From NCBI GenBank assembly GCA_963965975.1, contig OZ014414.1, positions 3,881,501 through 3,945,500 of the forward strand: a stretch of 64,000 nucleotides of DNA. Reading direction: 5' to 3'. Origin of the DNA: Xestospongia bergquistia (lineage: Eukaryota > Porifera > Demospongiae > Haplosclerida > Petrosiidae). The position numbers were made by a program, and so were the translations under genes. Under the pieces are notes generated by a model that was given only the letters and a program-made list of their open reading frames with translations, searched no databases and was not told the origin of the DNA. This document shows positions 3,065-60,887 of this stretch, in pieces (the stretch's first letter is position 1; each line of letters starts with the position of its first letter).

Positions 3065-3190
3065 TCTAAACTATACAGTCACACTACTATTATTAACCCT
3101 ATGATACACAGTGATGTCATAATCTGAGTACAAGTCAGATTGTCATACAAGTTACGCCAACAAGGATCCTGAGTGAGGCGCTGAGAAGAC

Positions 3191-4543
3191 ATGTCTGTTT
3201 GTAGGATTATATTTATAATACTGTTTAGTCTGTTCCTTGTCAATGAAACAACTAAAACACCAAATAGAGGGTACTTATGGATCATTAATGCTAGTTCAAG
3301 ACTTTTCAAGATGACTAACCTACAAAACTACAAAATGGTAACTTGGAACTTTTCTGATATACCTCCTCAGACAATGAAAAGATTCTACATTGAGTATGGC
3401 ACAGATATCTATCAATCTGGTAATGTTACGTTCCAACTAGATGGAGATTATGAGGAGTTTGAAATACAGATTTGTTGGCCTTACAGTGACATTCAGTGTG
3501 ACCATGGTATTACTGTGAATTGGAAGACACTGTATATGATAAACTATGAAGTATTTCCTCCATTACTTCAAGGTCCACTTGGATGGATAGAAAATGGCTA
3601 CCTTTCAATTCTTGTATTAGAAAAAGGAGTTAGGACTACAGTCAAAACAGTTGAGCCTGATTCAAGCTCCATTGTCAACCCAATTGATACAATGACTATT
3701 CCAAAAACCTTCATTAACAGCCAATGGATGGACTATTACAGCGATATATTAGGCAGGCTTACATTAACAGAAATGACTCTACCAGGAACACATGACTCGG
3801 GAACATACCATCCAATTAATAGTTTTAAAAAGCCTTGGACTAAAACGCAAGCTGTAAGCCTTAACACTCAATTAAAAAGAGGAATAAGAGTCTTAGATTT
3901 ACGAATAGGACAGAATAAACCAGGTGATTATGTTATTGTACACGATGTATTTCGTACAAATTATAGTCTAAAAGAAGCTTTAAAAGAAGTCACTGATTTC
4001 ATTGACTCTACTTGTTATGAAATTGTAGTACTGGACTTTCATCGTTTTAACAATCTTGGAGAAGGAAGCTTTGACTTTGATCAGCTCAAAGGTCAAATAA
4101 AATCTTATCTTAGTGGCTACTATTTACATGTTAGTCAAGGCAAAGATAAGCCTCTTAAAGACATATGGGTTTCATGTAGAAAGGATCGAGTAGTTGTAGC
4201 CTGGAACACTAATAATTCAGATAGCTATATGTGGCCAGGAGTAGCACAAAGTTGGTACCAATATGCTAAAACAATAAATGATCTGTATGCTGATATTAAA
4301 GAAGATATGGCTGACACTCACTCTGGTATGTGGGCTACATGCTCATTTACAGCTAGTAGTGCACTCAATACACCACACGAGATTGCTGTTGAGTTAGACC
4401 CGACAATTACCCGATGGTATTATGGAGGATCAAAATGGTGTGAAAAGGCTAACATCATAAGTGTTGATTTCTTTGAATATACTAATATTATACAAGCCAG
4501 TATTATTAGTAGTCTAATGAAAGCTGGAACAAAATACATGTAG
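3191..4543 (+). CDS. Secreted PI-PLC X-domain-containing protein
   Basis: Single-exon gene of 450 codons. Residues 1 to about 22 form a signal peptide (basic start, then a hydrophobic run IIFIILFSLFLV). Residues about 25-165 form an N-terminal region I do not recognise, with alternating beta-like segments. From about 185 to the end lies a phosphatidylinositol-specific phospholipase C X domain. The first catalytic His is H201 in LPGTHDSGTYH, followed by VLDLRIG. The second is H251 in VIVHDVF, then VVLDFHRF. In the PLCXD family these two histidines cleave phosphoinositide or GPI-type substrates; there is no Y, C2 or PH domain. The signal peptide implies secretion or luminal action. The ATG at 3191 places the signal peptide at the N-terminus. 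It has no counterpart in copy 2 of the duplication and is the only clearly intact gene here. Exact substrate unknown. Confidence 0.9.
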   Translation: MSVCRIIFIILFSLFLVNETTKTPNRGYLWIINASSRLFKMTNLQNYKMVTWNFSDIPPQTMKRFYIEYGTDIYQSGNVTFQLDGDYEEFEIQICWPYSDIQCDHGITVNWKTLYMINYEVFPPLLQGPLGWIENGYLSILVLEKGVRTTVKTVEPDSSSIVNPIDTMTIPKTFINSQWMDYYSDILGRLTLTEMTLPGTHDSGTYHPINSFKKPWTKTQAVSLNTQLKRGIRVLDLRIGQNKPGDYVIVHDVFRTNYSLKEALKEVTDFIDSTCYEIVVLDFHRFNNLGEGSFDFDQLKGQIKSYLSGYYLHVSQGKDKPLKDIWVSCRKDRVVVAWNTNNSDSYMWPGVAQSWYQYAKTINDLYADIKEDMADTHSGMWATCSFTASSALNTPHEIAVELDPTITRWYYGGSKWCEKANIISVDFFEYTNIIQASIISSLMKAGTKYM

Positions 4544-25392: not shown

Positions 25393-26388
25393 TTATTGAT
25401 TTCGAACTGGAATGCTGTAGAGCAGAGATGTCCAGGTAGGATTGATGATAAAGCCTGGATCCAGGTTGATGGTATTGCTGGTGGTTTTGATGAAGATGGC
25501 TTCTTTGGTCTTTCTCTTCCACCAGCTGATTTCTTGTTCAAGTATTCTGCATTCATCCCATAAAATCTTGTGTCCCGTTTTGATGAAGTGGAGAGCTAGA
25601 GCATTGGTGGAATCACCATTCTTAACAGCCCTCTTATGTTCAGCTTTTCTTATTTTTATTGTTCTGCCAGTTTCCCCAATGTATACAGCACCACATTCGC
25701 AAGGGATCTCATAGATGACTCCCACTTTATCCTCTGGTGGAGTAAGGATCTTGACATGTGATAGGGATCTCCTAAGTGTATTTTTAGAGGTAAATGCAGT
25801 TTTGATGTTGAGGGAACGACAAGCTTGACTGATGCCTTCACTTAGGCCTCTGACATAAGGAAGGACAAGGGTTCTCTTCTTGTTCTCTTTTGTCAAGGAT
25901 TCTTCGGATGGTATTGGAGCAACTGTTGTTCTCTTCTTAGGTTTAGATTGAATAAGGCCATAGTAAATCCTTCTAGATGGGAAGCCGTTAGCTCTGAAGA
26001 CACTGTGTAGTCTCATGGAGTCTATCTCATGGGGGAGTGTATCCTCTGAGCATACGTTGATAGCTCTCTCCCTGAGACAATTGATGATACCTGATTTGAC
26101 AAGTGGATGGTGGTTGGATCTGTAATTCCGGTATCTATCAGTATGGGTGGGTTTCCTGTAGACTGTTGTAGTAAGCCTGTTGTTGTTCTTTGAGATGATT
26201 ACATCTAAGAAGGCAATGGAGTTGTTGATTTCCATCTCCCTTGTGAACTCAATCCTATCGTGTAGGCCATTGATGTGGGACAGAAAATCCTGTAGGGAAG
26301 AGCTGTTATGAGGCCAGATAACGAAGGTGTCATTGACATATCTTCTCCACAGTTTTGGTTGTAGATGAAAGGGTGAGATAGCAGTCAA
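25393..26388 (-). pseudogene. Penelope-like RT C-terminal part and GIY-YIG endonuclease
   Basis: An open frame of 331 codons. The RT catalytic box reads RRYVNDTFVIWPHN (YVND instead of the usual YxDD), followed by AFLDVIISKNN and the TVYRKPTHTDRYRNY stretch typical of Penelope RTs. A linker follows, then the endonuclease near residues 220-300: VGVIYEIPCECGAVYIGETG, then R, EHKRAV and WWKRKTKEAIFI. GIY-YIG nucleases nick target DNA to prime reverse transcription. The frame is separated from the upstream RT part by a frameshift and an in-frame stop (about 26392-26440), so no full-length protein can be made. The listed start Met is internal to the RT. Confidence 0.9.
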
Positions 26389-26391
26389 TTT

Positions 26392-27102
26392 TCAAAATCT
26401 TCCATAAAGATATTGGATACTGTGGGTGATAGTGGTGAACCCGTAGCTGCATGTACCGTCCGTCTGTTCGTAGAGCTTATCTCCAAACCTGAAGAAGGTG
26501 GATCTGAGGCATAGTTCTACTAGATGACAGATCTGAAGTGGGGTCATGGTGGTTCTATTTCCTAGATCCTCATCTGATTTTAGTCTATCTTTGATGATGG
26601 TGAGGGCATCATTGATTGGCACTCTGGTAAACAAGCTCTTAACATCAAAACTGACAAGTAAGTCATTTTCTTCCAGATGAAGGTGAGAGATGGTACTAAT
26701 AAAGTGGGAAGAATTTTTGACATAACTGTCCGTTTTCCCAACAAGAGGGGAAAGAATCCTATTAAGCTCTTTAGCCAGATTATATGTAGCAGATCCAATA
26801 GTACACACAATGGGTCTAAGTGGAACTTCTGTTTTGTGTATTTTAGGTAAGCCATAGATCTGCGGTATGGTAGGATTCTTTGGGATAAGGTGTTTGGCTA
26901 GTTCTGGGGAAATATTATTAGTTTGAAGGACATCTTCCAGAGATTTCTTTATGGAATTGGTGAATCTGTTGGTAGTGTTGCCTTTGGTGATTTTGTAGTC
27001 ATCCTGATCCAGTAGATTTCTTATTTTTGACACCTAGTCATCTTTGTTCATCACAACAGTGGCATTACCCTTGTCGGCTGGAAGTATGACTATCTCCTTG
27101 TT
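26392..27102 (-). pseudogene. Penelope-like RT N-terminal part, truncated
   Basis: This reads from the truncation point as KEIVILPADKGNATVVMNKD, an in-frame TAG (about 27034), then DQDDYKITKGNTTNRF, IYGLPKIHKTEVPLRPIVCT, ATYNLAKELNRILSPLVGKT and DLLVSFDVKSLFTRVPI. The last contains the first catalytic Asp (FDV). It reaches a frameshift inside the Q-T-D-G-T-A-x-G-S box near 26450. It is homologous to the RT at 54070-54800 throughout. The missing 5' end is consistent with incomplete reverse transcription at insertion. Confidence 0.9.
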
Positions 27103-36824: not shown

Positions 36825-38095
36825 AATCATCAGGGCTACTGTGTCGTAGTATAATTGTTCCATCTACTGTGTCTTAATGTAATTGTCTAATCTGCTGTGT
36901 CCTAATGAAACATTCCCACTGTGTCCTAATGTAATTGACAATCTACCTTGTCCTAATGTAACAGCCCTGTCTACTGTTCCTAATGTCCAATCTACTGTGT
37001 CCTAGTATAATTATCCCATTTACTATGTCCTAACATAATTTTCATAACTACTGTGTCCTTGTGTAACCATCTGTTTTCTAACACTCTTGTCTACTTTGTT
37101 ATCTGTACCATCTACTGTGTCCTAGTATGATTGTCCTGTCTACTGTGTCCTAACGTAACTGTCCCATTTACTGTGTTCTAATATAACATCCTGTCTACTG
37201 TGTTGTAATGTAATTGTCCTATCTACTGTGTCCTAATGCAACTGTCCCATTTACTGTGTCCTAATGTAACTATCCTGTCTACTGTGTTGTGATGTAATTG
37301 TCCTATCTACTGTGTCCAAACATAACTGTCCCATCTACTGTGTCCTAACATAATTGTCCCATCTGCTGTATCCAGATGTAAGCTTCCATTCTACGGTCTC
37401 CTAGCATAATTGTCTGAACTACTGTGTGGTAATGTAATTGTCCTGTCTATTCTGTCCAATGTACTGTGTCTTAGTATAACTGTCCTGTCTACTGTGTCCT
37501 ATTGTGACTGTCTTGTGTCCTAATGTAATTGTGCTGTCTGCTCCTAATGTAATTGTGCTGTCTGCTGTGTTCTACTATCTCCTAATGTATTAGTCCCATC
37601 TACTGTGTCCTACTGTAATTTTCCTGTCTACTGTGTCCTAATGTACTTTCTTGTCTACTGTGTTCTATTATAATTGTCCCTTCTACTGTGTTCTGTAAAT
37701 GTCACTATACTGTGTCCTAATGTAAATGTCTTCTTTACTGTATTCAATGTAAATGTCCCTTATACTATGTTCCAATGTACTTGTCTCATCTGCTGTGTCC
37801 AAATGTAATTGTCTCCTCCATTGTGTCCTAATGTAACTCTCTCATGTCTTAATATAATTGTCCTGTCTGCTGTGTCCTAACATAACTGCTTGTCTACTGT
37901 CTCCTAATGTATTTGTCTCATCTACTGTGACCTAATGTAATTTTTCCATTTACTGTCTCCTAATGTATTTATCTTGTCTACTGTGTACTACTATGTCCCT
38001 GTGTAATTGTCCCATCTGTCCCAATCTGACTGTATTGTTTACTGTGTTCTAATGTAGCTGTCTCGTCTACTGTATCCTAATAATTGTCCTTGTAC
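36825..38095. repeat. 28-bp minisatellite (CTACTGTGTCCTAATGTAAT-type)
   Basis: About 1.27 kb of degenerate units around CTACTGTGTCCTAATGTAAT followed by TGTCCTGT, roughly 45 copies with substitutions and some partial units. No open frame crosses it. It lies between the unknown exon and the ABCA relic. 38096-38457 shows nothing else. Confidence 0.9.
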
Positions 38096-51689: not shown

Positions 51690-53440
51690 TTTTTAAAATT
51701 ATCATAATTGTGTTACTTTGCTGTGACAAATAGAGTGGTTGTGATTTTACACATGATATATATAAATTTGATGACACATTTAAATTATTGATGGCTGTCT
51801 TTATTTTTGGTAAATTTAAGTTGACAGAAATCTTTTTCTTTTACATATAAATCTTATATTGGTTAGACAAAAGTTGACCACACACATAAACAACTAATAG
51901 TGTTTTATAGTCAATATATGTCTCATTATATCTAACAAAATGTACTGTTATTACATTATGTGTAAGACTTGAAAAGGTTGAAAATTGTTTGACAAAATTA
52001 GATTGTGAACTTCAATATCATTTAAATAACTTTCTTCATTGATTATACTAACTTATAAACCTGAGTCTTAATTGACTGACAATTAAATCCTAACTGATAT
52101 AAAATGTACAACTAATATATACTACATAATGTGTTATCATGAAATTATGGCAAATAATATGTAAACAAATGGACAAACATATATTAGCAATGGATACATA
52201 TTGATTAGTAATGGATGCTCATACAGAATAATGGAAATTGTTCTTATTTAGTCTCCGATAAAAGATGACTATTATTGAAAGATATTTTTAAAATTAAGAA
52301 AAGATCTAAAGATGGCAATGCCAAAAAACATAAACAATAAATAAGGCAGTGACCCCCAACCAAACATCTGCAGAAACGTGTTCAGTAAAGACCAAAACAT
52401 ATTAATAGTATTATAATAAAAATCATAAAATAAATCATACATTATTATTACCTCTAACTTATAACAAATCCTAGATCCTGAAGCTCAACAATGCTATGTA
52501 AATAAAACAAAAACAAGAAGTAATAATGTGCTATAAACTCATAAGTTAAGATAATGTAAACTTAAACACTTTGATGGAGAGATAAATGAGTCACTTGAGA
52601 TCCAATAGTCCAACTAAACTATATGAACAAACAAAATTAAAGAACAATTATGTAATATAGGCTAACATTACATTAGAATATATTGACAGTATATCATTTG
52701 AGAGTAGTACATTCAACAGCCGTACATTTGGCAATATCACAACATAAAATTACTAAAGTATATTTTACAGTCTCATTATAAATAAGAAACTTACGGTTTA
52801 CAAAGACTATAACCTGTATATGTATCTATGACTGAACAGATAAACAAAATACAATTTTAACTTATACAGTGTTATTACAATTTTACTAACAGAATAAACT
52901 ATATGTGTCTTTAGTTATCATTACATCAGTATATCAAAATGTCCAGATAGCTAGCGAATACATATTATAGGCACAAACCAAACTTCCTACAGAATAAGAA
53001 GTCATATTGTCACTGGCTATTATTGAGTGTGTCACTATATTATAATACCATGTTATATATGTTAGCAGCAACACTGACAAATAAAGAGTAAACTTGATAA
53101 CTGACTAACCTCTTATCTGTAGTCTTACTGTATTCTGAGAATATATATTAATAAAAAAATTAAACAACATTAAATAAAATCAATTCTTACAAATATGTAT
53201 TCAGGCATCAGGCTGTTCCTACTGACAGACATTAGGTAACCATTTTTGTCAGACTGAGATTTGTATACTGGCACTGGTCTGTGGAATACTTGTAAGAGTC
53301 TAGTCTGTAAAATATTGTACAATGTTCTATCAATAATACAAGTTTTGATCTTCAGTAGACTATAAAATTAATAATAGGTTAGTCAACCTTAATCTTACTC
53401 CTTCATTTACATGTGTGTCATCACACTAATCATGAACACC
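51690..53440. other. AT-rich region, one possible micropeptide
   Basis: Mostly without coding signal. The only block I note is 52272-52400, listed next. Confidence 0.5.
52272..52400 (-). CDS. Possible 42-residue membrane micropeptide
   Basis: Minus-strand ATG at 52400 opens MFWSLLNTFLQMFGWGSLPY, followed by a hydrophobic LLFMFFGIAIF and a basic, polar end to tandem stops. One membrane helix, Trp and Phe rich, positively charged after the helix. No family recognised, no adjacent splice site needed. Chance ORFs of this size are common, so this is a weak candidate. Confidence 0.2.
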   Translation of the reverse strand: MFWSLLNTFLQMFGWGSLPYLLFMFFGIAIFRSFLNFKNIFQ

Positions 53441-53504
53441 TCATTTCATTCAATATCACACACTACTGCAACATCTACAGGTATTAAAATTTACACATAT
53501 AGAT

Positions 53505-53897
53505 ATTCGTATTGCATGGAGAACCAACCTAGCTCTGGTAAGAGAAAGAATCGAGGATGACAGAAGAACTAAGGCCATGCTAACGAAAGACATTGGTGAG
53601 ATATCAGCAAAACTATCCAACACTACACAACGGGAAGACCTCAGCAACATCTTTCACTGGGTAAACCACCACAAAATCAAAGTAAATAAGAAATCAAAAA
53701 AGCACCTTATCAAAAAATGCCAATACTTCATCAACAAGGACACTTCAAAGACAAAGCATTTTCAACTTAATGAAAAGAAACTGGTTGTCAACCTAAGCAA
53801 CCACAACTTAACGGAGCCTCAAAACAACGTCCTTACTTTGCCACCAACCCAAGAAGGGTCCCATACACTGATATTGTTGCAGCCACTGAGCAAGTGA
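53505..53897 (+). pseudogene. Penelope-like ORF, N-terminal region
   Basis: Open from before the first Met: RIAWRTNLALVRERIEDDRR, then IGEISAKLSNTTQREDLSNI, LIKKCQYFINKDTSK and KKLVVNLSNHNLTEPQNNVL. The last is the conserved N-L-S-x-x-x-L-T-x-x-(E/Q) stretch that precedes RT in Penelope-like elements. A frameshift near 53840 ends the frame. The sense continues in another frame through PSTEGQQL and about 54000-54060, LKENKEIVILPADKGNATVV, into the RT. This N-terminal part is absent from the truncated copy at 25096-27102. Confidence 0.8.
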
Positions 53898-53999
53898 CAA
53901 AATCACTACCATCAACTGAGGGACAACAACTTGTGAGACTGTCAAGTCCTGTCTGGATAAATCACCAATTCCCACTCTCAATCAGGTAGAACACGCAGC

Positions 54000-54730
54000 T
54001 ATCAAAAGCCTCAAGGAGAACAAAGAAATAGTCATCCTACCGGCTGATAAAGGCAATGCCACAGTAGTATTGAACAGAGACCAGTACACGTTCAAGATGA
54101 AAGAACTGCTGGACCAAGATGACTACAAAATTATAAAAAGAAATCCCATGAACAAACTTGTCAGCACCATCAAAAAAGCACTGGTAAACATCCTACAATC
54201 CAACAACATCACTCCAGAGCTAGCAAATCGCCTTATTCATAAGAATCCCACCCTACTGCAGATATATGGCCTCCCAAAGATACATAAAAAAGAGGTATCA
54301 TTAAAACCTATTGTCTGCACAATTGGCTCTGCCACATACAACCTGGCAAAAGAGCTCAACAGAATTTTATCCCCTCTTGTTGGTAGAACAGATAGTTTTG
54401 TCAACAACTCCTTCCACTTTGTCAACATCATCTCTCGAATCCACCTAGAGGATAATGACTTATTGGTCAGTTTTGACGTCAAAAGCCTGTTTACCAGGGT
54501 TCCTATCAATGAGACTCTTATCATCACAAAAGACATATTGCTTTCGGACTCAGAACTAGAAAAGAAAACCACCATGAAACTATGCTTAAAGTCTACATTC
54601 TTCAGCTATGAGGATGTTATATATGAACAAACAGGTGGTACAGCTATGGGATCCCCACTATCACCTACAGTGGCTAATATCTTCATGGAAGACTTTGAAA
54701 ACACAGCCATTGCTACATTCCACTTACAAC
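54000..54730 (+). pseudogene. Penelope-like RT, part before the hAT insertion
   Basis: IVILPADKGNATVVLNRDQY, DQDDYKIIKRNPMNKL, IYGLPKIHKKEVSLKPIVC, DLLVSFDVKSLFTRVPI (first catalytic Asp) and EQTGGTAMGSPLSPTVANIF, then FHLQP at the insertion point. The same segments occur in the copy at 26392-27102. About 12 codons seem missing between KKTTM and KLCLKS compared with the other copy. After 54730 the open frame continues by chance into the hAT end (to 54825); that tail is not RT. Confidence 0.9.
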
Positions 54731-55339
54731 CAGACATGGGGCAAGCATTTACTGAAGTGCTTGAAGCACAACTTAAAGCATTCATAAAAGAGCTTAAGCA
54801 CAAGCACAAGCATTTATGCTTCTAAAAAATAAGTGCTTGAAGCACAAATTCAAGCACTTAAAAAATGCTTGAAGCACAAGCACAAGCATTTTTGACAAAA
54901 AATGTCCTTCAAATAAACAATTCTTTTATCTAAGTCAACTTTTAAAATACTTCTTGTTAGATCGTATAAACATTAGTTATAGAATATAGTATCTACCAGT
55001 CGGCATCTCTCTGGCCTAAAGATCTTGTTTGCCACACTAAACAGCTGCTCTACTACATAAAAAGATACAGGAACTCCCAACACAGTTGTAGTTATATTTG
55101 CTAATGATGGATAAACAGACTGATAGCAAAAGAGTGCTAAGTGCACAAAGAACTTGCAGCCTTTGTGCTTAAAAGTGCTTATAAAGTGCTTTAAAGCACT
55201 AATGCTATAAAGTGCTTAAGCACAAGCACAAGCATAAATGCTTATATATAATAAATGCTTGAAAGCACCTCCAAGCATTCCAAAAAATGTGCTTAAAGTG
55301 CTTTCAAGCACAAGCACTCAAGTGCTTGCCCCATGTCTG
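54731..55339 (-). mobile_element. hAT-type element, 609 bp, nested in the Penelope RT
   Basis: 8-bp target duplication CTTACAAC at 54723-54730 and 55340-55347. Terminal inverted repeats CAGACATGGGGCAAGCA-TT at both ends. The interior is rich in AGTGCTTGAAGCAC-like palindromic phrases near both ends. A minus-strand block (about 55110-54985) reads PSLANITTTVLGVPVSFYVV, then EQLFSVANKIFRPERCRLVD, matching the hAT C-terminal dimerisation region (L-x-V-P-x-S/T...E-x-x-F-S-x-A...R). CAG ends, an 8-bp duplication and that remnant identify a deleted, non-autonomous hAT. Confidence 0.9.
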
Positions 55340-55344
55340 CTTAC

Positions 55345-55847
55345 AACATAAAATTTGGAAGAGATATATAGATGACACCTTTGTCATTTGGCCACACAAC
55401 AACTCCTCCTTACAAGAATTCCTGACCCACATCAATGGTCTACAAGATAAAATCAAGTTCACCATGGAGATTGAGAACAACAACTCTATTGCCTTCTTTG
55501 ATGTACTTGTTTCTAAAAACAATTGTAGATTGACTACAACTGTTTACAAGAAACCTACACATACTGATAGATACCTGAATTACAGATCCAACCACCATCC
55601 ATTCATCAAATCAGGTATTATCAAATGCCTCAGGAACAGGGCCCTCAATCTTTGCTCAGAAGGAAACCTCCTCTGTGAGCTAAATAGATTATACAATGTC
55701 TTCAGAGCAAATGGGTATCCATCAAGTAGAATAAACAACAGCCTTAAACCATCAAGGCTCAAAAGGAATGAAGATGTTTCCACCTCTCCCTGCAACCCTT
55801 TAACAAAGACAGACAGGAAGAGAACCTTATGTCAGAGGCCTCAGTGA
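55345..55847 (+). pseudogene. Penelope-like RT, part after the hAT insertion
   Basis: Resumes as HKIWKRYIDDTFVIWPHNNS with an intact YIDD catalytic box (the other copy has YVND), then IAFFDVLVSKNN, TVYKKPTHTDRYLNYRSNHH and the linker region up to RKRTLCQRPQ, where a frameshift (about 55830) ends it. Sequence just before 55345 in the same frame belongs to the hAT end. Confidence 0.9.
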
Positions 55848-56272
55848 GGACATTGGGAAAGCCTGTCGCCCCTTTAACATCATAACAGCCTTTTCCTCAA
55901 AAAATACACTCAGATTATTATGGGTCAAGACCCCACTCCACAGGAAGAAAAGATTGGAGTCACCTATAGGATCCCCTGTGAATGTGGAGCTGTTTACATC
56001 CGGGAAACAGGCCGAACATTGAAGACTAGGATAGCTGAACATAAAAGAGCTGTCATGAACAGAGATACCAACAATGCTCTTGCATGACACTACATTGACA
56101 CAGGACACAGGGTTGAAAACAGAATATTAGAACAAGAAATCAACTGGTGGAAGAGGAGAATTAAAGAAGCCATCTACATCAAAACCATCACCAACACCAT
56201 CAACTATGATTCAAGCTTAATCATCAACCCTACGTGGACTACTCTATTCTGCAGTAAACGATATTCTTAATA
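55848..56272 (+). pseudogene. Penelope-like GIY-YIG endonuclease, decayed
   Basis: In shifting frames: ITAFSSKNTLR, then VTYRIPCECGAVYIRETGRT, RIAEHKRAVMNRDTNNALA and NWWKRRIKEAIYIKTITNT in sense. The second Gly of the Y-I-G box is Arg (VYIRETG against VYIGETG in the other copy), which probably inactivates the nuclease. A stop follows ALA (about 56086). Confidence 0.8.
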
Positions 56273-56473
56273 ACTTATAGCCACTCCTCCTATTATTAAT
56301 TAACCAGTTCGCGTTCATTTCGTGCTTCGTGGTACAACTCTGTACTCGTGATCTCTAACATGGTACAACTTAGCGTCCTTTTCTATCTTCCTAGGACAAC
56401 TTCTGGCCTACATAAAAACCGTAAACATCATGCATTTGCTATATAAGTGACTGTTTTCTTGCCACTGTTTCTT

Positions 56474-56502
56474 AACAGCTGATGAAGGCCTTTGGCCGAA
56501 AC
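56474..56502 (+). ncRNA. Hammerhead-ribozyme-like core, 3' strand lost
   Basis: AACAG, CUGAUGA (56479-56485), A, GGCC-UUU-GGCC (4-bp stem II), GAAAC (56498-56502). The catalytic core is intact here, but the following bases are a degenerate ACTTTTAACTTTTAAC run where the copy at 25155 has GUU and CUGUA, so stem I and the cleavage site cannot form. An extra A precedes stem II. Confidence 0.55.
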
Positions 56503-56739
56503 TTTTAACTTTTAACTTTTTTTCAGAATTCTATCACGTTCATATAGCTCAATTAATTTCTATATTTAAAATATGAATAACGTGATAAACAAAATTCCTA
56601 CTTCAAATATCATATTGTATAATTAGACAATATTACCTCATCTTGTATTTTACACATACACACACTCACATGCAGATGAAGCACAAAATAATTGATAAGT
56701 ATTTAGTATTTTAATGCATAAATATTAACAAGCACTTTG

Positions 56740-56830
56740 ACAATATAACCTAATAATACTAAATGCAATACTACCAAATGTAATACTACTAAGTGTAATA
56801 CTGCCAAATTAAATATTGCCAAATGTTATA
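56740..56830. repeat. Short degenerate repeat AATACT-CCAAATGT
   Basis: About five units around TAATACTACCAAATG at 14-16 bp spacing, just upstream of the exon-like array. 56561-56739 contains nothing else recognisable. Confidence 0.6.
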
Positions 56831-56898
56831 TTGTTTAATATAATATTGTAATATCAGTGTCTAATGCAGCATTACTATATATTTTTTGTCTTCTATAG

Positions 56899-59800
56899 CA
56901 TTGCAAGACATTAGGATCAAGGCTAAAGAAATTCATCTATTTCAAAGAATCTAAGTGTGTAAGTAAACAGAAGAACACACTACTAGTTGACATAAAACAC
57001 CATTACTCTTAATTTCTTTTTATTTCTGTAGCGTCATTGTACATCACGATCTAAGAGCAAGGCATTCATCTATCTCAAACACTCTGGGGGTGTAAGTTAA
57101 CAGCACACAATATTAGTTGATATAAATTTATAATGCATCATTACTCTTAATTTCTTTTTATTTCTGTAGCATTGTTGGACATCACGATCTAGGAGCAAGA
57201 CATTCATGTATGTCAAAGACTCTGGGGGTTTAACTTAACAGCATACTCTAGTAGTTGACATCAATTTAAAAGACATCATTACCTTTAATTTCTGTTTATT
57301 TTTCAAGCATTGTTGTACATCACGATCTAGGAGCAAGACATTCATCTATCTCAAAGACTCAGAGGGTATAAGTTAATAGCACACATTACTAGTTGACATT
57401 AGTTTAAAAGACATCATTACTCATAATTTCTGGTTATTTCTCAGGCGTCGTTGGATATCACAACCTAGGAGTGAGACATTCAGCTATCTCAAAAACTTTG
57501 GAGGTGTAAGTGCTGAGCACCCACAATTACTTGACATTAACTTATAATACATCATTACTCTTAATTTTTGTTTATTTCCGTAGAATTATTAGACATTAAA
57601 ATCTAGCAGCAAGACATTCTTCCATCTCAAAGACTCTAGGGATGTAAGCTAACAACACACACTACTACTTTACATTAGTTTATAATACATCATTGTTCAT
57701 AATTTCGGGTTATTTCTCAGGCGTCATTGGATATCACGACCTAGGAGCAAATCATTCATCTATCTCAAAGACTCTGGAGGTGTAAGTTAACCGCAAACAC
57801 TACTAGTTGACATTGAATTAAAGACATCATTACTCTTAATTTCTGTTTATTTCTATAGCATCATTAGACATCACGATCTAGGAGCAAGACATTCATCTAT
57901 CTCATTACTCTAGGGGTGTATGTGTATGGCATAAAACTACTAGTAGAAATTAATTGATAATATATCATTACTCTTAATTTCTCTTTATTTCTGTAGGGTC
58001 GTTGTACATCACAATCTAGGACATTCGTCTATATCAAAGACTCTTGGGGTGTATGTGTATGGCACAAACTACTAGTAGAGAGTAATTGACAATACATCAT
58101 TACTTTTAATTTCTCTTTATTTCTGTAGCGCCATTGCACGTCACAATCAAGGACAAGACATTCTTCCATCTCAAAGACTCTGGGTGTGAATGTTAGCAGC
58201 ACACACACTAGTTGACATATAATCGATTATTACTTTTAATTTGTGTTTATTTCTATAGCATCTTCAACATCACAATCTAGGACCAAGACATTCATCTATC
58301 TCAATGATTCTAGGGGTGTATGTTAATGACACACACTACTAGTTATGGTTATATATATAATACACTGTCTCTTTAATTTCTCTTTAAATCTACTGTTTAG
58401 TTGCGGATCACGATCAAGGACCAAGATGTTCATTTATCTCAAAGACTTTGGGTTGTAAGTTAACCACAAACACTACTAGTTGACATTGAATTAAAGACAT
58501 AATTACTCTTAATTTCTATTTATTTCTGTAGCATCGTTGGACGCCACAATCTAGGAGGAAGGCATTCATCTATCTCAAAGACTCTGAGGGTATAAGTTAA
58601 CAGCACACACTACTAGTTGACATTAATTTCAAAGACATCATTAATTTCAATTTCTGTTCATTTCTTCAGCATCATTGCACATCACAATCTAGGAGAAAGA
58701 CATTCATCTATCTCCAAAAATCTAGGGGTGTAAGTTAATGGCACACACTAATAAAGATAAACTTATAACTGTAGCATCATTGTACATCACAATCTAGGAA
58801 GAAGACATTCTTCTATCTCAAAGACTCCGCAAGTTAACAGCACACACTACTAGCTGACATTAATTTATAGTACATCATTACTTTTAATTTCTGTTTATTT
58901 CTGTATCATCATTAGACATCACGATCTAGGAGCAAGACATTCATCTATCTCATTACTCTAGGGGTGTATGTGTATGGCATAAAACTACTAGTAGAAATTA
59001 ATTGATAATATATCATTACTCTTAATTTCTCTTTATTTCTGTAGGGTCGTTGTACATCACAATCTAGGACATTCGTCTATATCAAAGACTCTTGGGGTGT
59101 ATGTGTATGGCACAAACTACTAGTAGAGAGTAATTGACAATACATCATTACTTTTAATTTCTCTTTATTTCTGTAGCGCCATTGCACGTCACAATCAAGG
59201 ACAAGACATTCTTCCATCTCAAAGACTCTGGGTGTGAATGTTAGCAGCACACACACTAGTTGACATATAATCGATTATTACTTTTAATTTGTGTTTATTT
59301 CTATAGCATCTTCAACATCACAATCTAGGACCAAGACATTCATCTATCTCAATGATTCTAGGGGTGTATGTTAATGACACACACTACTAGTTATGGTTAT
59401 ATATATAATACACTGTCTCTTTAATTTCTCTTTAAATCTACTGTTTAGTTGCGGATCACGATCAAGGACCAAGATGTTCATTTATCTCAAAGACTTTGGG
59501 TTGTAAGTTAACCACAAACACTACTAGTTGACATTGAATTAAAGACATAATTACTCTTAATTTCTATTTATTTCTGTAGCATCGTTGGACGCCACAATCT
59601 AGGAGGAAGGCATTCATCTATCTCAAAGACTCTGAGGGTATAAGTTAACAGCACACACTACTAGTTGACATTAATTTCAAAGACATCATTAATTTCAATT
59701 TCTGTTCATTTCTTCAGCATCATTGCACATCACAATCTAGGAGAAAGACATTCATCTATCTCCAAAAATCTAGGGGTGTAAGTTAATGGCACACACTAAT

Positions 59801-60317
59801 AAAGATAAACTTATAACTGTAGCATCATTGTACATCACAATCTAGGAAGAAGACATTCTTCTATCTCAAAGACTCCGCAAGTTAACAGCACACACTACTA
59901 GCTGACATTAATTTATAGTACATCATTACTTTTAATTTCTGTTTATTTCTGTATCATCATGGACATCACAATCTAGGAGCAAGACATTCATCTATCTCAA
60001 AAACTCTGGGATAAGTTAACAGCACACACTACTAGTTGACATTAATTTAAAATACATCATTACTTTTAGTTTCTGTTTATTTTTGTAGCGTCGTTGGATA
60101 TCACGATCTAGGAGCAAGACATTCATGTATCTCAAAGACTCTAGGGGTGTATGTGTACGGCATAAAACTACTAGTATAGACTTATTGATAATACATCATT
60201 ACTCATAATTTGTATTTATTTCTGTAGCATCATTCCACATCACGATCTAGGAGCAAAACATTCATCTGTATCAAATACTCTGCGAGTGTAAGTGAACAGC
60301 ACACACTACAAGTCGAC
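56899..60317 (+). repeat. Tandem array of about 26 exon-like units with splice-site-like borders
   Basis: Unit period about 131-138 bp: a block of usually 60 bp, then a spacer of about 75-78 bp. The block is preceded by TTATTTCTGTAG and followed by GTAAGT or GTATGT in most units, exactly as an exon would be. Blocks start at about 56899, 57032, 57170, 57308, 57446, 57584, 57722, 57859, 57997, 58129, 58259, 58401, 58532, 58670, 58775, and so on to 60228. Many are open for exactly 20 codons of the type HxWTSRSRSKTFIYLKDSGG (units 1-4, 13, 14, 25, 26); two have 18 codons. Others have stops or one-base indels. If spliced, each phase-0 60-nt exon would add 20 residues (basic Ser/Arg start, FIYLK centre). 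No flanking gene was recognised. It may be a decaying exon array or a satellite. Confidence 0.85.
57859..59954 (+). repeat. Higher-order duplication inside the array, 2 x 1,048 bp
   Basis: 57859-58906 (eight units) is followed directly by 58907-59954, which appears identical wherever I compared it, including rare features such as the CGCCATTGCACGTCAC block and the GCAAGT donor. It is much younger than the unit-to-unit divergence, or an assembly artefact. Confidence 0.9.
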
Positions 60318-60734
60318 TGTGACCAATGGTGCCCTGCAGATGGATCGAGTTATACAGGTTGAGCTAGCAGATCACTCTTGTGATGATTCAGCAATATATG
60401 ATGAAAAATGGACCTATCAAAATACGCAAGAAACAGACCAATCAATATACTTAAGAAACGGACCAAGAAAAATCGCCAGACAGAGTATAAAACGGGGCAG
60501 ATGCGATTGTAAAGAGAGACTCGAATTCAAGCAGAGGAAAGGGTTCTAACAGGAGAAACTGAAGTTAACCACTAACAGCCGATCACCTTACGCCCTGTCT
60601 AACAGGACTCAACTGAACACTTGTTATATTCTCTACTGTTTTATTTTTATTATACGCTACCATATTTGTTCACTATTAAAGTTACTTTTGTTCTTTATGC
60701 AAAGTATTCCACTGAAAATAAGCAAGTTAAGACA
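60318..60734 (+). repeat. 5' LTR of the gypsy element (proposed limits)
   Basis: Starts TGTGACC right after TCGAC (the presumed 5-bp target duplication) and ends GTTAAGACA, six bases before the primer-binding site. Contains a TATA-like GTATAAAACGG at 60487 and ATTAAA near 60676. Without the 3' LTR the limits are provisional. The 85-codon ORF at 60292-60549 crosses the insertion junction and is not a gene. Confidence 0.6.
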
Positions 60735-60740
60735 GTAATC

Positions 60741-60758
60741 TGGTGGCAGCAGTGGGAT
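60741..60758 (+). other. Primer-binding site
   Basis: TGGTGGCAGCAGTGGGAT starts with TGG, the complement of a tRNA CCA end, six bases after the proposed LTR end, and has the GGCAGCAGTGGGAT form common in Ty3/gypsy elements. Confidence 0.7.
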
Positions 60759-60887
60759 ATTTTTGATACTGGTTGTGAGAAGTGAACTAAAGACAACAAG
60801 AAGTGAAACCATATGAGTAAATCCAGTTATCATTCCCGATTAAGGTGAACAGAGTCATTAAAGAATTTACCCAACACAGCTAGAGGG

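What the first reader, a model, noticed from the sequence alone, without database searches (positions are those of the whole stretch)
56899..60317. Tandem array of about 26 mini-exon-like units, many exactly 20 codons long
Each unit couples a block of usually 60 bp to a spacer of about 76 bp, and the borders look like splice acceptor (TTATTTCTGTAG) and donor (GTAAGT or GTATGT). At least eight blocks are open over exactly 20 codons of one repeat peptide (SRSRSK...FIYLKDS); two more are 18 codons, still a multiple of three. Phase-0 symmetric exons could be included or skipped in any number without changing frame, a way to make variable-length repeat proteins. Other units have stops, one-base indels, or donors changed to ATAAGT or GAATGT, so the array may be decaying, or may be a satellite born from one exon.
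Basis: partly seen in the sequence, partly recalled or inferred. Interest (0 to 1): 0.85.

Follow-up and report, generated by a model that had tools for sequence, protein, structure and literature searches.

The report
Decayed array of repeated non-coding exons
The 26 repeated units look like a dead, satellite-like copy of an exon from a repeated non-coding gene family that also sits, pointing outwards, near many chromosome ends of this genome; in smaller relatives the splice sites are kept while the exon letters drift.

Summary
The protein reading fails: no excess of synonymous changes, blocks and spacers diverge alike, and homologous arrays elsewhere have blocks of 58, 59, 60 or 62 bp. The exon reading fits the relatives: the same unit, between the same flanking mini-exons, occurs 1 to about 30 times at other loci, and in those arrays AG, GT and donor +3..+6 are kept while exon and intron drift equally; the four arrays above 30 units, and this window's, show no such constraint as groups. 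The window copy has lost an upstream donor and promoter-like motifs and is cut by a Penelope-like and an LTR element. The same exon order lies near at least 23 contig ends, pointing to the end, with 0 of 22 core splice columns variable among 21 copies. Best reading: a dead offshoot of an end-directed, spliced, non-coding RNA gene family that amplifies one exon. Transcription and splicing are inferred; no RNA data were available. Closest known: Plasmodium lncRNA-TARE and TERRA.

The parts
56885..60318 (+). Array of 26 exon-plus-spacer units (about 60 + about 76 bp); splice borders evolve like the rest of the unit, so it is read as dead
58886..59933 (+). Second copy of 57838-58885 (about 1,048 bp, eight units) inside the array
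56676..56694 (+). Relic of the 19-nt exon that precedes the units in the family; AG at 56674-56675 kept, donor at 56695-56700 reads ATAAGT (GTAAGT in the other 17 of 18 listed rows)
56606..56884 (+). Rest of the conserved 5' flank that adjoins the array
56751..56830 (+). 15-bp minisatellite (TAATACTACCAAATG); at other loci its reverse complement lies behind the array
52344..52997 (-). Relic of the other, inverted arm of the element: the arm that at chromosome ends points to the contig end (77-78% to the C8 left-end copy); a 42-bp remnant of the unit at 52469-52510
52998..53504 (.). Remains of the head-to-head region between the two arms; about 610 bp of it is missing against the C4d copy, and the motifs TGACTCA/TGAGTCA and CACGTGA, present in the 6 other loci checked, are absent
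53505..56605 (+). Insertion with reverse-transcriptase frames, Penelope-like by eye (RVT_1 in Pfam), between the head-to-head region and the array (limits approximate)
60332..60780 (+). LTR-like repeat of a retrotransposon (integrase core found downstream) that interrupts the array; a partner repeat lies past the window (L011:1272-1695, 81% identical) and units go on from L011:1722

Best explanation
The window array is a dead, satellite-like expansion of one exon of a multi-exon, non-coding RNA gene family. Anatomy (shown): a head-to-head element with a palindrome of usually about 620 bp in the middle; at interstitial loci the right arm carries a 19-nt exon, the about 60-nt exon repeated 1 to about 30 times with about 78-nt introns (and in relaxed loci more), then a 14-nt exon. 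The inverted arm, with the same exon order, lies near at least 23 contig ends and points to the end. Selection (shown statistically): AG, GT and donor +3..+6 are kept in arrays of up to 30 units as a group and at the chromosome ends, while exon letters, exon length and reading frame are not. Inferred: the palindrome is a bidirectional promoter, the RNA is transcribed and spliced, and what selection sees is the spliced product or the act of splicing (for example splicing-coupled chromatin effects near chromosome ends), not a protein. Unequal crossing-over changes unit number; once a copy loses its promoter and flanking splice sites, as here, the units drift and grow into a satellite (the dead block covers about C4:3938-3992 kb).
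For: Arrays on C3, C4, C5, C10, C12 and C14 share about 1.65 kb of 5' flank and 0.2-0.75 kb of 3' flank; C7 and C8 copies share them too. In seven regular arrays AG/GT changes, gaps counted, are 4 against 46.1 expected (0 of 20,000 resamplings as low), exon 0.064 and intron 0.062 (the seven were picked). Without picking, all 16 arrays with at least 5 units: summed AG/GT frequency 3.26 against 5.80, P=0.0018; donor +3..+6 variants 41 against 59.6, P=0.0012. The 12 arrays of at most 30 units, window included: 14 AG/GT variants against 28.9, P=0.0002 (the size cut was chosen after the per-locus table). Internal AG/GT dinucleotides change like the body. A C8 array, fetched after the prediction was noted, keeps AG in 17 of 17 and GT in 16 of 17 (the other is GC), with 58-nt exons in 15 of 17. 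The 19-nt exon keeps AG and GTAAGT in 17 of 18 listed rows; the window is the exception. At 21 chromosome-end copies 0 of 22 core splice columns vary against 197 of 1,033 others. Orientation: copies at 13 of 13 left and 10 of 10 right contig ends point to the end, with one extra inward copy near the C10 right end.
Against: No RNA evidence at all; transcription and splicing are inferred from sequence. Single-locus P values are weak (best 0.012), and the count of distinct AG/GT variants over all 16 arrays is not significant (50 against 59.3, P=0.07). The four arrays above 30 units show no depletion (36 against 30.5). Of the three loci fetched as a test, C8 fits, C14d is about half relaxed and C12b (5 units) is decayed; pooled AG/GT P=0.28. 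C14d and C12b keep the 19-nt exon's borders although their units are relaxed, so decay of flank and units is not always coupled. C5b has lost 3 of 24 donors, the last C14a unit its acceptor (dropped by the length filter), and the second C7 unit its donor. The 14-nt exon shows both borders in 11 of 18 rows only; its acceptor is missing or unaligned in C12 and C14b, and C2L has a weakened donor. The contig ends were not shown to be telomeres: the start of C4 has no telomeric array. No spliced retrocopy was found.
Confidence: 0.66

Rival explanations
1. The whole family is a non-coding satellite or tandem repeat; the splice-like borders are chance or fossils and are not under selection.
For: True for the window and the neighbouring C4 block: AG/GT variants 27 against 22.0 expected; block and spacer diverge alike. 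The four arrays above 30 units are unconstrained as a group, and over all 16 arrays the count of distinct AG/GT variants is not significantly low (P=0.07).
Against: Arrays of at most 30 units and the chromosome-end copies keep AG, GT and donor +3..+6 beyond chance; single-unit and two-unit copies with the same flanking mini-exons exist.
Confidence: 0.17
2. A protein-coding repeat gene: phase-0 20-codon exons, or a fast-evolving micro-exon gene in another frame, for example starting at the ATG of the 19-nt exon.
For: C3 array: 23 of 23 blocks are 60 bp and 20 of 23 open; 12 of 13 60-bp window blocks are open. Several loci have ATG at the start of the 19-nt exon. In C12 a frame that reads through exons and introns stays open for 259 aa on the array strand. 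Stop-making changes are fewer than expected in C4b (4 against 6.6, P=0.03).
Against: No synonymous excess in C3 (13 against 10.8 expected), C4d (10 against 9.9), window (8 against 11.8), C4b (31 against 27.5) or C4c (29 against 27.2); no codon periodicity, nor in the C12 read-through (12, 16, 15 variants), which other stops interrupt and which none of the other six arrays tested shows; block lengths 58, 59 and 62 in intact arrays; first units of four loci show 14 synonymous to 42 non-synonymous codon differences in the ATG frame, no expectation computed; C3 and C4d have TAA inside the 19-nt exon, C10c has TTG, and the chromosome-end copy C4L has no ATG there.
Confidence: 0.06
3. A non-autonomous mobile element with long inverted arms (foldback-like) that carries a tandem repeat; splice motifs serve the element's own transcript.
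For: Palindrome, minisatellites in opposite orientation on the two sides of the array, outer inverted repeats at C14a; copies on many chromosomes.
Against: Copies are strongly oriented: those counted at 23 ends point outwards, and in most interstitial clusters copies share one strand (C2 and part of C5 and C10 are mixed), as expected of segmental duplication and end exchange rather than insertion. No enzyme frame belonging to the element was noticed; target-site duplications were not searched.
Confidence: 0.11

Closest known systems
lncRNA-TARE family of Plasmodium falciparum (PMC3218844; abstract and passages read)
   Same: Homologous non-coding loci on most chromosome ends (22 of 28 there; at least 23 contig ends here), oriented towards the end, alike (88.1% mean pairwise there; 87-96% to the C4 query here), with palindromic motifs.
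   Different: Unrelated organism; none of the 8 passages on splicing or introns shown describes introns in it. Here mini-exons are conserved and one exon is amplified. Transcription is shown there, only inferred here.
TERRA and yeast subTERRA (PMC5932542; abstract and outline read)
   Same: Subtelomeric non-coding transcripts, towards telomeres (subTERRA in both directions, as two arms here would be).
   Different: Telomeric-repeat content could not be shown here; multi-exon structure and exon arrays are not part of what I read about them.
C19MC microRNA host transcript with tandemly repeated exons (PMC7692494; passages read); SNORD115/116 host genes (recalled)
   Same: Repeated exons in a non-protein-coding, spliced host transcript.
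   Different: There the introns are held to yield small RNAs; here 4 introns of 78-81 nt have folding z-scores from -2.0 to 1.0 and no Rfam family matched in the sources searched.
Splice-site constraint in human lincRNAs (PMC4245815; abstract and outline read)
   Same: Constraint sits in splice-related sequence rather than in exon cores.
   Different: That is a genome-wide average; here it acts on tandem copies of one exon.
Schistosome micro-exon genes (name met in the listing; features recalled)
   Same: Many very small exons in series.
   Different: Micro-exon genes encode proteins with symmetric exons (recalled); here lengths and frame are not kept.

Membership tests
End-directed telomere-associated lncRNA families (lncRNA-TARE type) | Homologous loci on most chromosome ends | tested here: met
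   23 of the 28 ends of contigs C2-C15 show a copy in a capped listing; that these contig ends are telomeres is not shown
End-directed telomere-associated lncRNA families (lncRNA-TARE type) | Transcribed towards the telomere | not testable with these tools
   Only exon order and splice-site orientation are shown: 13 of 13 left and 10 of 10 right ends have outward copies; no RNA data
End-directed telomere-associated lncRNA families (lncRNA-TARE type) | Non-coding | tested here: met
   For the interstitial arrays: no synonymous excess, no periodicity, lengths not multiples of three; no codon test was run on the chromosome-end copies
TERRA | RNA contains telomeric repeats | tested here: inconclusive
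   L029 (first 7 kb of C4) holds 3 TTAGGG and 1 CCCTAA only; the assembly may stop short of the telomere
Small-RNA host genes with repeated exons (C19MC, SNORD115/116) | Introns contain small structured RNAs | tested here: not met
   No Rfam match in the window, L021, L030, L031; 4 introns tested, z 0.2, 0.7, 1.0 and -2.0
Micro-exon or repeat-protein genes with symmetric exons | Exon length a multiple of three and coding constraint | tested here: not met
   Lengths 58, 59, 60 and 62 in intact arrays; no coding signal
Neutral satellite DNA | No column-specific constraint | tested here: met
   Met for the window and the C4 block (27 variants against 22.0 expected); not met for arrays of at most 30 units (14 against 28.9)

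The most novel reading that the evidence does not exclude
A spliced, end-directed non-coding RNA gene sits near most chromosome ends of an animal-like genome; interstitial head-to-head copies amplify one non-coding exon to dozens of copies, and selection keeps the splice sites of nearly every copy in the live arrays while ignoring the exon sequence, so that the number of splicing events, not the RNA's letters, is what matters. The window shows the end state: a copy that lost this selection and turned into a satellite.
Probability: 0.45. Interest if true: 0.78.

Novelty: new variant of a known kind. Interest (0 to 1): 0.6.

Why it matters
If true, it gives a natural experiment that separates selection on splicing from selection on sequence in a non-coding RNA: dozens of copies of one exon in live and dead arrays in one genome. 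It would also add a multi-exon, exon-amplifying example to the known end-directed telomere-associated RNA families, and show a route by which an exon becomes a satellite.

Tried and rejected
Protein repeat: rejected on codon tests, frame and length. A frame +1 protein starting at the ATG of the 19-nt exon looked attractive by eye (note) and showed no clear signal in the count. Reading straight through the units: longest frame on the array strand 45 to 71 aa in six of seven arrays and 259 aa in C12 (in one search the C12 strand label is that of the locus, not of the array); the C12 frame shows no codon bias and is broken elsewhere in the array. Mirtrons or structured introns: not supported. Known RNA families: none at gathering score in the window or in L021, L030, L031. 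Spliced retrocopies as indirect proof of splicing: none seen (a capped listing, where the reversed control also had 0, so a weak test). A 5' UTR of a downstream gene: the long frames behind five arrays (C4d, C5a, C5b, C5c, C12) lie on the opposite strand, and in the 1.5-8 kb fetched no downstream stretch beyond the 3' flank is shared by all loci. A YY1-like motif noted is not general (2 of 7 regions) and is dropped. Searches for a printed precedent (ten searches, titles and abstract starts seen, four papers opened) showed no spliced, end-directed family with amplified exons; only open-licence papers are held, so this is weak evidence of novelty.

Rows dropped before counts: units with 90 or fewer aligned bases or blocks of 40 or fewer, 110 or fewer, 100 or fewer; one search lists the dropped rows of the first 14 loci and their borders (among regular arrays: one C14a unit with a lost acceptor, nine partial C14b rows, and two minus-strand rows at C4d and C10b, from the inverted arm by position). 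Also dropped: loci with fewer than 5 units (C5c), two of the three near-identical C14b copies, gaps and CA-repeat columns and columns with fewer than 17 of 21 sequences, where one donor of the first split unit was not caught by the site pattern (11 sites used). The three arrays C10a, C14d and the C4 block run beyond the fetched pieces. C3R has two copies; one was aligned. The second C10 right-end copy (C10:7335286, pointing inwards, under 1 kb from the contig end) and the C1 matches (contig length not seen) are not counted among the 23 ends.

Full report
What is there. The window (C4:3881501-3945500 of a 146.5-Mb, 21-contig genome) holds 26 plus-strand units at 56885-60318 with a period near 138 bp. 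Each unit has a block of usually 60 bp between an acceptor-like border (pyrimidines, then AG) and a donor-like border (GTAAGT or GTATGT). AG is intact in 20 of 26, GT in 17 of 26, both in 12. About 1,048 bp of the array (eight units) is a second copy of the stretch before it.

Relatives. A 402-bp piece has 187 matches, a lower bound, those listed being on C3, C4, C5, C10, C12 and C14. I fetched 20 regions, then L029-L031, L032-L034 and 20 chromosome-end pieces. A profile found 607 units in the window plus the first 20 regions, all but a few on one strand within each locus. With units masked, the flanks of different arrays still match: about 1.65 kb upstream at 73-92% (C3 against C4d, C10, C5, C12) and 0.2-0.75 kb downstream. 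So the array sits inside a larger repeated gene-like element. Unit number differs: 1 at C14:3832k, 2 at C7:3301k, 3 and 5 on C5, 16 to 29 at C3, C4:4036k, C10b, C10c, C12, C14a, C14b, C5b and C8, and at least 67 at C14d and 90 at C10a.

Coding test. In the regular arrays the usual block length is 60 (C3, C4d), 59 (C12, C14a, C14b, C5b), 62 (C10) or 58 (C8). No synonymous excess: C3 13 against 10.8 expected, C4d 10 against 9.9, window 8 against 11.8, C4b 31 against 27.5, C4c 29 against 27.2. Stop-making changes are fewer than expected in C4b (4 against 6.6, P=0.03) and, weakly, in the window (1 against 3.2, P=0.07), the results that lean the other way. Changes do not gather at one codon position. 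First units of four loci show no clear coding signal in any frame, though no expectation was computed. In C12 one frame that reads through exons and introns is open for 259 aa on the array strand; it has no codon bias, is broken elsewhere in the array, and has no counterpart in six other arrays.

Splice-site test. In seven regular arrays, substitutions per site are 0.064 in the exon, 0.062 in the intron, 0.000 at AG, 0.011 at GT and 0.015 at donor +3..+6; AG+GT changes, gaps counted, are 4 against 46.1 expected from other columns of the same loci. These arrays were chosen after I had seen, so I repeated the test without choosing and without gaps. All 16 arrays with at least 5 units: summed AG/GT frequency 3.26 against 5.80 (P=0.0018); donor +3..+6 variants 41 against 59.6 (P=0.0012); AG/GT variants 50 against 59.3 (P=0.07). 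Split by size, a cut chosen after the per-locus table: 12 arrays of at most 30 units (the window among them) 14 against 28.9 (P=0.0002); 4 arrays above 30 units 36 against 30.5 (no depletion). The window, C4b and C4c alone: 27 against 22.0. AG and GT dinucleotides elsewhere in the unit change like the body, so this is not a general property of those letters. Single-locus tests are weak: the lowest P values are 0.012 (C14b), 0.038 (C3) and 0.041 (C4d).

Test on fresh loci. Before fetching, I noted that regular arrays should keep AG/GT. C8 (17 full units) did: AG 17 of 17, GT 16 of 17 with one GC, donor +3..+6 unchanged. C14d (65 full units) is about half relaxed (0.05 against 0.10). C12b (5 units) is decayed. 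Pooled, AG/GT is not significant (P=0.28) and donor +3..+6 is (P=0.04). So live and dead arrays both exist, and the large ones examined tend to be relaxed.

Neighbouring mini-exons. Upstream lies a 19-nt block between CAG and GTAAGT, kept in 17 of 18 listed rows (three are near-identical C14b copies; one is the inverted chromosome-end copy; ten built the profile); the window is the exception, with ATAAGT. C14d and C12b keep it although their units are relaxed. Downstream lies a 14-nt block between CTCTAG-like and GTGAGT-like borders, with both borders recognisable in 11 of 18 rows. A palindrome lies in the 5' region of 9 of the 10 stretches with 5' flank that one search printed (usually 490-770 bp, 303 bp in C14a); the window is the one without. 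TGACTCA (either strand) and CACGTGA occur there in 6 of 6 loci checked and not in what is left in the window.

Chromosome ends. A piece of the 5' flank is found near the ends of many contigs. There, on the strand that points to the contig end, lie the same parts in the same order: 19-nt exon, a relative of the unit exon (split in two by an extra intron), and 14-nt exon. Copies lie within about 71 kb of 23 ends of contigs C2-C15; those at the 13 left ends are on the minus strand and those at the 10 right ends on the plus strand; one further copy near the C10 right end is inverted. Aligning 21 of them: 0 of 22 core splice columns vary, 2 of 20 donor +3..+6 columns, and 197 of 1,033 others; core plus donor 2 against 8.0 expected, P=0.007; gaps were not counted, and C2L has gaps at the 14-nt donor. 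Most ends listed have two copies of the split unit where C4L has one. The window's own inverted arm survives as a relic at 52344-52997.

Why the window copy is dead. Part of its head-to-head region is gone, an insertion of about 3.1 kb with reverse-transcriptase frames sits between it and the array, the 19-nt exon's donor is lost, and an LTR element cuts the array; its two LTR-like repeats are 81% alike, which suggests an old insertion. Units go on behind it to about C4:3992k.

Mechanism. Shown: shared anatomy, end-directed orientation, constraint on splice sites without constraint on frame or exon letters. Inferred: a bidirectional promoter, transcription, splicing, and a function that depends on splicing or on the spliced RNA. 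Human lincRNAs are reported to be constrained mainly at splice-related sequence, with splice-chromatin coupling as one proposed reason (PMC4245815, abstract and outline). The nearest known system is lncRNA-TARE, 22 of 28 Plasmodium chromosome ends, transcribed towards the telomere (PMC3218844, abstract and passages). The resemblance is in location and orientation; I do not file this as a member of that family, since transcription was not tested and the organisms are unrelated.

Organism. Not named. Penelope-like elements, a frame with a HEPN domain and a sub-threshold DnaJ match that resembles KIAA0730 (sacsin, name recalled), and MATH-domain repeats beside arrays suggest an animal; that is an impression, not a test.

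Noticed in passing
window 3185-4543 (+): Single open frame of 452 aa with a phosphatidylinositol-specific phospholipase C X domain (Pfam E 6e-8).
   Followed up: no
window 25393-27033 (-) and 53436-55847 (+): Two Penelope-like elements by eye; RVT_1 was found in a frame of the second, the first was not scanned.
   Followed up: partly
window 36836-38088: Minisatellite of a 28-bp unit (CTACTGTGTCCTAATGTAATTGTCC-like) in a stretch with strong strand skew.
   Followed up: no
L010:143-242 and its matches on C4, C5, C6, C14: A 100-bp piece of the array's 3' flank recurs at about 65-170 kb spacing on one strand within clusters on C5, C6 and C14; three of the C14 copies are over 99% alike over kilobases, so very large repeat units seem to carry arrays.
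   Followed up: partly
L025:3-3032, L027:3-3233, L028:2-1411, L016:3047-4891: Long uninterrupted frames on the strand opposite the arrays, downstream of them: HEPN domain with a sub-threshold DnaJ match (C5, sacsin-like), MATH-domain repeats (C12), one without a Pfam match (C4).
   Followed up: partly
L029:5938-6288 (-): Frame that looks by eye like a SET-domain histone methyltransferase, about 6 kb from the start of contig C4.
   Followed up: no
C10:7335286-7335764: An extra end-type copy under 1 kb from the right end of C10 that points inwards, against the rule seen at the other ends.
   Followed up: no
L009:5151-5776 and homologous places: The palindrome's arms are only about 65-72% alike within a locus, about as far apart as, or further than, different loci are from each other, so the arms do not seem to be homogenised.
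   Followed up: no
L028:4200-6400 (-): In the C12 array one frame stays open for 259 aa through exons and introns; probably chance, since the 138-bp period is a multiple of three.
   Followed up: partly
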